Below, piece after piece: positions 13,746 through 16,026 of a stretch of DNA of 64,000 nucleotides (the first letter of the stretch is position 1; every line of letters starts with the position of its first letter). Below the pieces are notes generated by a model, which was not told where the DNA came from, made no database searches, and was given only the letters and a program-made list of their open reading frames with translations. A program made the translations under genes and the position numbers. Source of the stretch: Sphingosinicella ginsenosidimutans (GTDB taxonomy: Bacteria; Pseudomonadota; Alphaproteobacteria; Sphingomonadales; Sphingomonadaceae); the NCBI RefSeq assembly GCF_007995055.1, contig NZ_VOQQ01000001.1, positions 930,001-994,000 on the forward strand. The letters are read 5' to 3'.

Positions 13746-13821
13746 GGGGCTGTAGCTCAGATGGGAGAGCGCTGCAATCGCACTGCAGAGGTCAGGGGTT
13801 CGATTCCCCTCAGCTCCACCA
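13746..13821 (+). tRNA. tRNA-Ala (CGC)
   Basis: A complete 76-base cloverleaf. Acceptor arms GGGGCTG and CAGCTCC pair over seven bases with discriminator A and an encoded CCA. The D arm is GCTC/GAGC, the anticodon stem CTGCA/TGCAG with loop ATCGCAC (anticodon CGC, codon GCG, Ala), and the T arm AGGGG/CCCCT with TTCGATT. The last 17 bases are the left attachment copy of the island. Confidence 0.97.
13805..13821 (+). repeat. Left attachment repeat (attL) in the tRNA-Ala 3' end
   Basis: TCCCCTCAGCTCCACCA forms the 3' half of the T arm, acceptor strand and CCA of the tRNA. An exact second copy lies at 25812-25828 and flanking bases differ on both sides. An exact 3'-tRNA duplication is the standard mark of integration by a tyrosine recombinase. 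Confidence 0.9.
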
Positions 13822-13994: not shown

Positions 13995-14540
13995 TCATCG
14001 ACGAAGATGTGATGGATGGATTTGTGCGTCGATAAGGGCATCGAACAGCTCTTCATCGATGTGCAGTGGCCGTCCGAGCCGCTCCCAGGCGTTGATCATC
14101 CGCTGATAGAGTTCGACAGTTGGCATGTGAGAATTGAAGTCTCGCGACAGGCGTTCGACGGATTCGAAGCGGCCCTCCTGCTCCACTACGTGCCGAGCAT
14201 AGGTCATGAGCTTGGTTTCGTTGTTCCCGTCGAAACCAGGAAATTTGGTCGTCGCGTGTTCACGCTTGGGCTTAAACTGGCGCTTCTCGCCATCCTGCAG
14301 CAACTCGAACACGTTGAGAGCGTCGAGCACGAACAGCTGATCCTCGCGGGTCAGGGCATCGCGAGCATAGCTCTTTATGATTTCGACATCCGGTAGGTCT
14401 TCGACCGGCCATCCCTGCACTGCTCGCTCTGCAGCGCGTCGCCAAAAATCCTCCTGGTCGACGTCGAGATACGAGAGGATGCGATACTGGTTTGCCAGCA
14501 CCATCCGTTTGAACAATGCGTCGGGAATCTCGTTGGTCAT
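13995..14540 (-). CDS. YfbU family protein
   Basis: A 181-residue protein matching the YfbU (UPF0304) family. Seen: ALFKRMVLANQYRILSYLD at the start, KFPGFDGNNETKLMTYARHV in the middle and DFNSHMPTVELYQRMINAW near the end, which correspond to the conserved NQY, FxGFDxNxE and YQRMxxxW blocks. The family is cytoplasmic and its function is not settled. The ATG at 14540 follows GAGGCGAT; the longer frame upstream runs through the promoter region. It is divergent from the RNA/Abi pair, with a shared palindrome between them, and is the first island gene next to attL. Confidence 0.85.
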   Translation of the reverse strand: MTNEIPDALFKRMVLANQYRILSYLDVDQEDFWRRAAERAVQGWPVEDLPDVEIIKSYARDALTREDQLFVLDALNVFELLQDGEKRQFKPKREHATTKFPGFDGNNETKLMTYARHVVEQEGRFESVERLSRDFNSHMPTVELYQRMINAWERLGRPLHIDEELFDALIDAQIHPSHLRR

Positions 14541-14562
14541 ATCGCCTCGTGGCCGCTTCGCG

Positions 14563-14626
14563 ATTGTCCGCGCTTTGCCATCGCGATTCAACTTTAAGTT
14601 GATATTCACTCGTGAGTCGCTATCTG
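14563..14626. promoter_or_regulatory. Divergent promoters sharing a 15-base palindrome
   Basis: TCAACTTTAAGTTGA (14588-14602) is a perfect palindrome. Rightward, TTGATA (14599-14604) and TATCTG (14621-14626) are spaced 16 bases and would start RNA near 14633, just before the folded RNA. Leftward, TTGAAT (14591-14586) and GACAAT (14568-14563) are spaced 17 bases and would serve yfbU. The palindrome overlaps both -35 boxes, so one regulator could control both sides. The boxes are matched by eye; the rightward -10 is weak. Confidence 0.55.
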
Positions 14627-14637
14627 AGTGACACCAC

Positions 14638-14690
14638 GGTCGCCCCCACTGGAAGCTAGGAAACTGGCTACAAGGGGCGGCCTTCTTTAT
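14638..14690 (+). ncRNA. Structured RNA upstream of the Abi gene (abiF RNA-like)
   Basis: Arms GGTCGCCCC (14638-14646) and GGGGCGGCC (14674-14682) form nine pairs with one G-U. Inside, AGCTAG (14654-14659) and CTGGCT (14664-14669) form six pairs capped by a GAAA tetraloop. The two stems are separated by an asymmetric internal loop (7 and 4 bases). TTCTTTAT follows the outer stem, as in an intrinsic terminator. The Abi_2 gene begins 10 bases after the T-rich tail. A conserved 'abiF RNA' upstream of Abi_2 genes is described; whether this belongs to that motif needs a covariance search. Confidence 0.62.
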
Positions 14691-14700
14691 ATCTGGGGCC

Positions 14701-15411
14701 ATGCTGCCGCCCTACGCAAAGCCCCATCTGAGTTTTGCTCAACAGGTCGCGTTGCTTCAGCAACGTGGGTTGGCTGTCACCAATCAATGGCAAGCCGAGC
14801 GACACCTAGCGCGCATCGGCTATTATCGCCTGAAGGATTACTGGTATCCGCTTAGGCAATCGAGGACTGCGATCCGGCCCGATGGCAGCCGCTATGCGGA
14901 CGTTCTTGAGGATTTCCGGCCCGGTACGAGCTTCACCCAAGCAGTCGATCTCTACGTTTTCGACAAGCAGCTTCGGATGCTGATGGCCGATGCCATCGAA
15001 CGAATCGAGGTCGCGTTGCGCGTAGACGTCGCTCACACGTTGGGAAAGCGCGACGCTTTCGCTCATCGGGATACCAACTTCTTGGATCCGAAGCGCTCGA
15101 TCGCGCCGCGCGGGCCGCAAACACGCCACCAAAAATGGCTCGCGCGCGCAGACGAAGCCGAACAACGATCACGAGCAGATTGGGTCGAAGAGTTCCGAAA
15201 AAACTATAGCCCGCCTATGCCAATCTGGATGGCGGTCGAAACTTGGGATTTTGGCGCTCTTTCCCATCTTATCGAGATGGCGCATCCCTCGGATCGTGTA
15301 GCGATCAGCAGGAAGTACGGCCTTTCGAACTCAGAGGTTCTATCGAGTTGGGTCAAGACGCTATCCTATGTCCGCAATGTATGCGCGCACCATAGCGCGC
15401 ATTGCTTTTAA
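14701..15411 (+). pseudogene. Abi_2 (AbiF/AbiD-type) HEPN protein, C-terminally truncated
   Basis: The 236-residue product starts like Abi_2 proteins (LSFAQQVALLQQRGLAV, then LARIGYYRLKDYWYPLR) and continues with LRMLMADAIERIEVALR and MPIWMAVETWDFGALSHL. It reaches the HEPN nuclease motif R-N-x-x-x-H as RNVCAH (Arg225-His230), but a stop follows within six codons. The usual RLWNR continuation and about 60-80 further residues are missing. DNA of another gene follows directly. Abi_2 proteins are abortive-infection or toxin-like RNases in the HEPN superfamily. The catalytic motif survives, so residual activity cannot be excluded. Confidence 0.82.
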
Positions 15412-15613
15412 CCATGCGTTTGGCGACGTGATTTGCGCGGGCGCAACGCCGGTTCAAGCGATGTTGTCGTTCGAATTCGGTGTCGACACGTCTGCAGAGG
15501 AACGCGCCTCGTGCTCGCAGGCCTTCGTACAAGAACTGGCTGAGCGTGGCGTAGCCCTTGGCAAGTGTCATTCGAGCCTAACCGACGGAGTGACAGCAGT
15601 CACCATTGCGACA
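15401..15613 (+). pseudogene. Internal fragment of a PurM/SelD-like gene
   Basis: In a frame different from the Abi gene, about 70 codons read as good protein: NHAFGDVICAGATPVQAML, then TSAEERASCSQAFVQELAER, GVALGKCHS and TDGVTAVTIATL. The pattern (N-x-x-x-D, A-x-G-A-x-P, later GVAL with a following H) recalls the N-terminal domain of AIR-synthase/SelD-type proteins; this identification is tentative. It has no start of its own, and both ends are abrupt, against Abi on the left and the integrase remnant on the right. It is a relic of an earlier deletion or recombination. Confidence 0.45.
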
Positions 15614-15617
15614 CTCG

Positions 15618-16026
15618 CGAGCCAACCATCCCGATCCACTCCGAGTTGATCCGCGCCGGCTTTCTGAAATTCGTCGATACCCACCGCAAGGCAGACGGAA
15701 CCGGAGCATCGCTTTTCCCGACGCTCAAGCCGGACCAATATGGGAACCTTGCGCGGTATCCGACGAAGCGCCTCAACGAGACCTACCTGCCGGCGGCGAT
15801 CAAGGTCGGAGAGCGACAGAGCCTCTACAGTCTGCGCCACAATGTCCGCGATGCGCTCCGACGCATCAAGGCTCCTCCCGAGGCTTTACGCGCAATTGCC
15901 GGCTGGTCGCCGGGCGGAAAATCCGCGAGCGACAACTATGGTGACCCGACGAACCCCGACCTCTATCGCGACTGGGTTGAGGGAATTGCCTACGAGGGAT
16001 TAGACTTGTCGTTTCTCCATCACTAG
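15618..16026 (+). pseudogene. Tyrosine recombinase/integrase, C-terminal remnant
   Basis: About 135 residues of the catalytic half remain, starting at TIPIHSELIRAGFL. The active-site region reads YSLRHNVRDALRR, then AIAGWSPGGKSASDNYGDP, giving the Arg/His/Arg box, the Trp that replaces His in many integrases, and the nucleophile Tyr in NYGDP. The N-terminal DNA-binding and core-binding domains are absent and no start is evident. It probably descends from the enzyme that inserted the island. It lies 1.8 kb from attL rather than beside it, consistent with later rearrangement. Confidence 0.8.

What the first reader, a model, noticed from the sequence alone, without database searches (positions are those of the whole stretch)
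14638..15411. HEPN Abi_2 gene preceded by a strongly folded terminator-like RNA
Seen: a nine-pair outer stem, an internal loop, a six-pair inner stem with a GAAA tetraloop and a T-rich tail, ending 10 bases before an Abi_2 gene that retains RNVCAH. Established: a conserved RNA called abiF occurs upstream of Abi_2 genes, and AbiF-type proteins with such RNAs have been described as toxin-antitoxin-like RNases related to Cas13 ancestry. Inferred: this is a (possibly decaying) RNA-controlled toxin in a sphingomonad island.
Basis: partly seen in the sequence, partly recalled or inferred. Interest (0 to 1): 0.85.

Follow-up and report, generated by a model that had tools for sequence, protein, structure and literature searches.

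The report
AbiF antitoxin-like RNA beside truncated toxin
A short, strongly folded RNA next to a broken bacterial toxin gene belongs to a conserved RNA class that accompanies one branch of AbiF toxins, and copies without any toxin gene turn up on plasmids and in phage sequences, where they may act as antidotes.

Summary
The hairpin (stem halves 14638-14646 and 14674-14682, T-rich tail to 14690) ends 10 nt before an Abi_2 gene with RNVCAH. It is a conserved RNA: an alignment of 16 leaders (window included) shows two-sided compensatory changes at 10 of 14 pairs, and a model made without the window finds the window copy as its only hit in 64 kb (41.5 bits). It is not Rfam abiF (RF03085), which fits RNAs of other AbiF branches. 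The toxin breaks off right after RNVCAHHS, lacks about 90 C-terminal residues and is probably dead.

Best reading: remnant of a type III-like AbiF toxin-antitoxin module whose RNA belongs to a class absent from Rfam. In relatives the RNA occurs (a) as leader, (b) as a separate gene convergent with abiF, (c) beside broken abiF genes, (d) without abiF: none on two whole plasmids, none within 1.5 kb in three unnamed-genome loci, none in six viral records of 32-62 kb. Arrangements b and d argue for a trans-acting RNA rather than a mere attenuator. The boldest reading is that phage copies are AbiF antidote decoys. Expression, binding and toxicity were not tested.

The parts
14599..14626 (+). promoter-like element TTGATA - 16 nt - TATCTG, its end 11 nt before the RNA stem
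   Evidence: same spacing (11-12 nt) in 27 of 29 bacterial copies; the window's own 8-of-12 match is not significant (61 of 200 shuffles as good), and the scan finds no promoter at its threshold
14633..14690 (+). predicted ~58-nt RNA of class R1 (model match 14628-14696 with R1, 14628-14695 with R2)
   Evidence: held-out model R2: 41.5 bits, E=2e-11, only hit in 64 kb; start inferred from the -10-like element, end from the T-rich tail
14638..14682 (+). hairpin: outer stem 14638-14646/14674-14682, two-pair UG/CA helix 14650-14651/14671-14672, inner stem 14654-14659/14664-14669, GAAA loop 14660-14663
14683..14690 (+). T-rich tail TTCTTTAT, terminator-like
   Evidence: T-rich tail also in relatives
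14701..15396 (+). 5' part (232 codons) of an abiF (Abi_2, HEPN) toxin gene, ending RNVCAHHS; about 90 C-terminal residues missing
15397..15411 (+). foreign tail AHCF + stop: reading frame after the break
15380..15580 (+). remnant of an AIRS-domain (AIR synthase-related) gene in another frame, around and after the break
   Evidence: Pfam AIRS E=2.6e-05, 25 bits against a cut-off of 24
15640..16023 (+). integrase-like C-terminal remnant (by eye; no Pfam match)
   Evidence: 0 Pfam families; 0 PHROGs; 35.8-37.1% identity to unannotated stretches in 4 plasmid records
13746..13821 (+). tRNA-Ala(CGC) at the left edge of the presumed island
   Evidence: same-genus flank matches end at or near 13821
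13995..14540 (-). YfbU-family gene, divergent from the RNA
   Evidence: Pfam YfbU E=1.1e-26 on the longer ORF 13995-14702; start at 14540 inferred

Best explanation
This is the remnant of an AbiF-type, RNA-inhibited toxin-antitoxin module. SHOWN here by comparison: a ~58-nt hairpin RNA of a conserved class (called R1) that accompanies one clade of AbiF proteins, and a toxin gene cut off just after its RxxxxH motif. INFERRED: in intact relatives the RNA is made from its own promoter, ends mostly at its own T-rich terminator so that little abiF mRNA is made, and binds the AbiF HEPN dimer to block its RNase; loss of the RNA or of its grip, for instance during phage infection, frees the toxin. In the window the toxin lacks about 90 C-terminal residues and is probably inactive, so the RNA, if still made, is a surviving antitoxin without its own toxin.
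For: Covariation: on 16 leaders RNAalifold predicts the same 14 pairs I had written down, 10 with two-sided changes; on 34 distinct copies 96.8% of cells pair, 12 of 14 pairs have two-sided changes, 0 of 500 shuffles reach the pairing or the covariation score, and slid controls pair 32-54%. Held-out detection of the window copy. Link with AbiF: the 22 R1-bearing AbiFs put in a tree of 44, the window's included, all fall in one 28-row clade (support 100/99); the four AbiFs whose leaders match RF03085 lie outside it. Own transcription unit: fixed promoter spacing in 27 of 29 bacterial copies; RNA convergent with abiF in L092, L093 and L094, its model match 5-7 nt from the abiF stop codon, and R1-like in L028 behind TTGACA-18-TATAAT. 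Toxin part: Abi_2; 8VZ6 is the only solved chain found at E<=0.01, E=3.8e-29, named PbAbiF in PMC12737573. Mechanism from print: RCd22 RNA neutralises AbiFCd in trans by direct binding, and transcription mostly stops before abiF (PMC12373285: abstract, section 6, section 13 part 1 of 2, passages); PbAbiF-RNA complex (PMC12737573, passages).
Against: No expression, binding or toxicity data for any R1 RNA. R1 is not RF03085, so function is carried over from a related, not identical, RNA. The window promoter is weak by consensus. The window copy keeps only 3 of the 5 consensus inner-helix pairs in register, though it has its own six-pair inner stem. Six rows of the 28-row clade have no R1 hit (L028, L065, L071, L072, two of L083), and the leader label needs 3 changes on the tree. 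The measure 'further pair types' is reached by 1 of 500 and 6 of 500 shuffles. Sequences are related, so shuffle counts overstate the case.
Confidence: 0.74

Rival explanations
1. The hairpin is only a cis-acting leader terminator or attenuator of abiF and does nothing as a free RNA.
For: In leader copies the stem starts roughly 50-70 nt before the aligned start codon and has a T-rich tail; premature termination before abiF is reported for C. difficile (PMC12373285, passages and section 13 part 1).
Against: In L092, L093 and L094 the RNA is convergent with abiF, so it cannot be its leader; it persists with no AbiF within 1.5 kb (L091, L105, L106), on whole plasmids without Abi_2 (L113, L114) and in six viral records without Abi_2. 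The conserved CAAYAYGG start and loop letters are not needed by a terminator; the generic terminators picked up by R1 score under 36 bits.
Confidence: 0.12
2. The window module is still active: the truncated 236-residue protein keeps RNase activity and the RNA controls it.
For: R225, N226 and H230 of RNVCAH are conserved in all eight sequences of A4, window included, and the ORF is open to its stop.
Against: Intact relatives have about 90 more residues; PADLOC AbiD is covered 4-203 of 277 here against 4-273 in an intact relative; the profile finds no C-terminal part in ORFs of 40 aa or more in the 3 kb around it (L035). A low-confidence model of a relative (pLDDT 55) puts further helices after the break.
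Confidence: 0.06
3. A chance GC-rich hairpin, or the plain terminator of a neighbouring gene.
For: 35 comparable stems on one strand of the window.
Against: Held-out model hit, covariation and clade-specific occurrence.
Confidence: 0.02

Closest known systems
Rfam abiF RNA (RF03085) and RCd22 of C. difficile
   Same: Short structured RNA just upstream of an Abi_2/AbiF gene, followed by a terminator; RCd22 neutralises AbiF (PMC12373285, abstract and sections).
   Different: abiF is a 37-nt motif with a 6-pair outer stem, 1 unpaired base 5' and 6 bases 3'; R1 has a 9-pair outer stem, 3 unpaired bases 5' and 1 base 3', then a two-pair UG/CA step. No RF03085 match. RCd22 carries two motifs, R1 one.
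PbAbiF-AbiFr complex (PDB 8VZ6)
   Same: Protein homologous over window residues 4-232; one RNA per monomer as described in PMC12737573 (passages).
   Different: The window protein ends where 83 residues of the 8VZ6 chain follow; I could not compare the RNAs (Cell 2025 paper not held).
Type III toxin-antitoxin systems (ToxIN, CptIN, TenpIN)
   Same: RNA antitoxin upstream of an RNase toxin gene; a phage pseudo-ToxI mimic is known (PMC5449768, passages).
   Different: The toxin belongs to Abi_2/HEPN, not to the ToxN family; the RNA is a single hairpin, not tandem pseudoknot repeats (ToxI from PMC12373285 and PMC5449768 passages).
abiF sRNA in lytic cyanophage S-CREM1
   Same: An AbiF-type RNA in a phage genome (RF03085, 51.6 bits; PMC9964418, passages).
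   Different: Classical abiF RNA, not R1; the passages I saw give no decoy interpretation.

Membership tests
Abi_2 / AbiF proteins (PF07751) | Abi_2 domain match | tested here: met
   E=1.9e-50, 172.2 bits, cut-off 25.6
Abi_2 / AbiF proteins (PF07751) | HEPN RxxxxH motif (needed for AbiF toxicity in PMC12373285) | tested here: met
   RNVCAH at residues 225-230
Abi_2 / AbiF proteins (PF07751) | full length (about 300-330 aa) | tested here: not met
   232 native residues; 14 of 15 relatives 312-336, one 380 with a divergent end; PADLOC 4-203 of 277
Rfam abiF RNA (RF03085) | covariance-model match | tested here: not met
   none at E<=5 in 14500-14760, none at E<=1 in L035; the model rings in controls
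Rfam abiF RNA (RF03085) | loop asymmetry 1 nt 5' / 6 nt 3' | tested here: not met
   3 nt 5' / 1 nt 3'
R1 RNA class (defined here) | match to a model made without this copy | tested here: met
   41.5 bits, E=2e-11, only hit in 64 kb
Type III toxin-antitoxin system | RNA gene upstream of toxin gene with a terminator between | tested here: inconclusive
   hairpin and T-rich tail lie as expected, but the terminator scan does not flag it and termination was not measured
Type III toxin-antitoxin system | RNA binds and neutralises the toxin protein | not testable with these tools
   needs bench work
Type III toxin-antitoxin system | full-length toxin gene in this locus | tested here: not met
   truncated gene

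The most novel reading that the evidence does not exclude
R1 RNAs are free-standing, trans-acting AbiF antidotes that spread without the toxin: phages and plasmids carry solitary copies as RNA decoys that disarm host AbiF, as pseudo-ToxI does for ToxN, and the window shows one step of this, an antitoxin RNA outliving its toxin.
Probability: 0.35. Interest if true: 0.82.

Novelty: new variant of a known kind. Interest (0 to 1): 0.62.

Why it matters
AbiF is reported as an ancestor-like relative of Cas13, and how its RNA partner turned into a guide RNA is named as an open question (PMC12737573, passages). A second, structurally different AbiF RNA class, tied to one protein clade and found in natural rearrangements (leader, convergent, solitary), is good material for asking what the protein recognises. 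Solitary copies in phage sequences make a directly testable candidate for RNA-based counter-defence against AbiF.

Tried and rejected
Rfam abiF as the identity of the RNA: rejected. Weak Rfam matches STnc40, mir-370, DUF3800-IX and nhaA-II: far below gathering scores, taken as chance. Protein-based scan of viral contigs: no relative. Low-scoring R1 hits, all under 36 bits (16 of 19 places, 10 of 20, 1 of 3, 11 of 12 in the own genome), were dropped from all member counts; those have no AbiF within 1.5 kb. I looked at nine of them: eight look like ordinary terminators, L040 does not fold into the hairpin. L162 (31.9 bits with R1) and L148 (28.1) were kept because of the conserved letters; L162 scores 39.8 with R2, L148 was not run with R2. 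Of 56 distinct viral loci fetched by pattern, 47 had no R1 match and were dropped. L124 is an R1 hit in a record without Abi_2, but its RNA ends 20 nt from the contig end, so it says nothing about solitude. Second copy of the tRNA end in the window, as a sign of an attachment site: none with up to 3 mismatches. Source of the AIRS piece among 59 other relatives: no match. AlphaFold of the intact relative L013: pLDDT 55, too poor for a fold search. Against the decoy reading: BLAST of a sphingomonad R1 RNA in 50,697 annotated phage records finds one record only, and that one has abiF; BLAST with the phage copy L110 finds nothing in plasmids or phages.

Full report
WHAT IS THERE. The hairpin, tail and Abi_2 gene are as described. 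The stem alone is not unusual for this window (35 comparable stems on one strand), so the case rests on comparison.

RELATIVES. The nearest relatives found are AbiFs of 56-60% identity in Sphingomonas, Sphingobium and acetic acid bacteria, many on plasmids (9 loci, one of them a 40% fragment; 401 of 72,556 plasmid records match at E<=1e-5, all under 60% identity). Among 98 related genomes 7 match, the window's own included. Of 23 related loci whose upstream stretch I folded, 22 show a hairpin before the gene; L028 does not, and L029's is continuous rather than interrupted.

THE RNA CLASS. Sixteen leaders (window included) align over 81 columns. RNAalifold, given only the alignment, returns the 14 pairs I had written down: nine outer, two UG/CA, three inner. 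94.2% of cells pair and 10 pairs show two-sided changes; 0 of 500 shuffles reach the pairing, the two-sided counts or the score, 1 of 500 the number of further pair types. Model R1 was built from these and run on 77 sources: 44 matches, 34 distinct: 96.8% paired, 12 of 14 pairs with two-sided changes. That second alignment was fitted to the model and leans towards it. As a held-out test I built R2 from 17 sequences without the window; RNAalifold again gives the same pairs, and R2 finds the window copy as its only hit in 64 kb, 41.5 bits. R2, which was built without any solitary copy, also scores the ten solitary copies given to it at 39.8-67.6 bits; these had been found with R1, with BLAST or with patterns of its letters.

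NOT RFAM abiF. No Rfam family reaches its cut-off at the RNA, and abiF is absent at E<=5. The abiF model does ring in a C. difficile phage (26.6 and 19.5 bits) and before the abiF genes of L064, L061, L062 and L067 (50.0, 36.3, 35.4, 27.7 bits); only 50.0 passes the cut-off of 37. It rings in none of the eight R1-bearing loci of that call (window copy included) nor in the seven. By eye L004-L007 also have abiF-like hairpins, which Rfam does not flag at E<=1. In a tree of 44 AbiF proteins the 22 R1-bearing ones fall in one 28-row clade with support 100/99; the other six rows of that clade are L028, L065, L071, L072 and two from L083. R2 gives weak hits in L072, L083 and L028 (24.4, 20.3, 14.9 bits) and none in the other non-R1 loci given. 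The leader label needs 3 changes on the tree against 14.8 in shuffles.

OWN TRANSCRIPTION UNIT. The best promoter-like pair of hexamers ends 11-12 nt before the stem in 27 of 29 bacterial copies, window included. Single matches vary: 0-3 of 200 shuffles are as good for the convergent copies, 61 of 200 for the window, more for some others; so the evidence is the fixed position among partly related sequences. Of five viral copies examined only L124 has it.

ARRANGEMENTS. In the family sample 8 of 298 genomes hold 10 places of at least 38 bits. Of these, three are leaders of full-length abiF, one is the window, three are convergent with abiF (L092, L094 in one frame; L093 broken over two) and three have no AbiF within 1.5 kb (L091, L105, L106). 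In the class sample 3 of 385 genomes hold such a place (the window, G356, G212), all with AbiF beside it. In 398 genomes of the phylum one place besides the window reaches 38 bits, G212 again. The large samples were scored with stricter filters that lose weak matches. On plasmids, L111 and L112 have the RNA before a short abiF remnant; L113 and L114 lie on plasmids with no Abi_2 match at all. The six solitary bacterial loci are four distinct RNAs, L091, L114 and L115 being the same. The Xanthomonas plasmid locus L028 has an R1-like RNA convergent with abiF behind a TTGACA-18-TATAAT promoter; R2 scores it at only 14.9 bits.

VIRAL COPIES. Seven pattern scans of viral contigs fetched 56 distinct loci; R1 matches 9. 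Six of these (L107, L109, L110, L116, L162, L178) lie in records of 32-62 kb without any Abi_2 match at E<=1; two have abiF (L148, L179); L124 is uninformative. Phage nature: major head protein near L109's copy, DNA polymerase genes on L107 and L162, amidase and a weak tail match on L110, integrase on L116; by eye a holin and an endolysin beside L178. These records may be fragments, so abiF elsewhere in the phage is not excluded. All nine outer pairs are intact in 6 of 6 solitary viral and 6 of 6 solitary bacterial copies, against 25 of 29 leaders counted as intact and 2 of 3 with truncated abiF (among the 29, L010 has a divergent protein end). In the annotated phage collection BLAST finds one R1 RNA, in a record that also has abiF.

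THE TOXIN. The window protein follows its relatives up to RNVCAHHS and then stops matching; intact relatives go on for about 90 residues. PADLOC AbiD covers 4-203 of 277 here and 4-273 in L089. After the break come an AIRS-domain remnant and an integrase-like remnant by eye (no Pfam or PHROGs match). In the rows listed, same-genus genomes match the left flank up to, or a few bases past, the end of the tRNA-Ala gene and the right flank from about 16256 at another place, with nothing between (the list was cut). So 13822 to about 16255 looks like an island.

MECHANISM. From print: RCd22 lowers abiF expression by premature termination and neutralises AbiF in trans by binding (PMC12373285: abstract, section 6, section 13 part 1 of 2, passages). 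From passages of PMC12737573: each PbAbiF monomer binds one AbiFr RNA, and bulge nucleotides inhibit its RNase. I infer the same logic for R1; the convergent and solitary copies speak for action in trans. In the window probably only the RNA can still work.

NOVELTY. My searches of the held library listed no paper that I recognised as describing such an alphaproteobacterial or solitary AbiF RNA class, but I looked only into the papers named here, and the library lacks the Cell 2025 and the 2017 Weinberg papers. A classical abiF RNA in a lytic cyanophage is in print (PMC9964418, passages), and so is a phage RNA mimic of ToxI (PMC5449768, passages). PMC12165695 (passages) calls RF03085 an RNA of unknown function. 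I therefore call this a new variant of a known kind.

Noticed in passing
L092, L093, L094 1501-1561; L028 3999-4070: The RNA gene lies tail to tail with abiF, 5-7 nt from its stop codon in the three sphingomonads and reaching the stop codon in Xanthomonas, under a near-consensus promoter: an unusual arrangement for an RNA antitoxin.
   Followed up: partly
L107, L109, L110, L116, L162, L178: Solitary R1 RNAs in viral contigs without any Abi_2 match, some between structural or near replication or lysis genes.
   Followed up: partly
L105, L106, L111-L115: Solitary or toxin-less R1 copies on plasmids and contigs often sit near metal or arsenic resistance genes (arsH, arsN2, P-type ATPase as annotated; P-type ATPase and MerR by eye in L105 and L106).
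   Followed up: no
window 13995-14540: Divergent YfbU-family gene, also matching a phage family of unknown function (phrog_6084), in the same presumed island.
   Followed up: no
L083 (G435 contig C158): Two abiF genes in tandem, one with an R1-like leader whose outer stem has largely different letters (GACCCGCUC/GGGCGGGUC).
   Followed up: partly
L004, L005, L006, L007: Other sphingomonad AbiF genes carry abiF-like hairpins that Rfam does not flag; RF03085 may be too narrow.
   Followed up: no
L010, abiF from 3316: The abiF of Sphingomonas sp. PsM26 reads on to 380 aa with an end unlike its relatives, possibly another late frame change.
   Followed up: no
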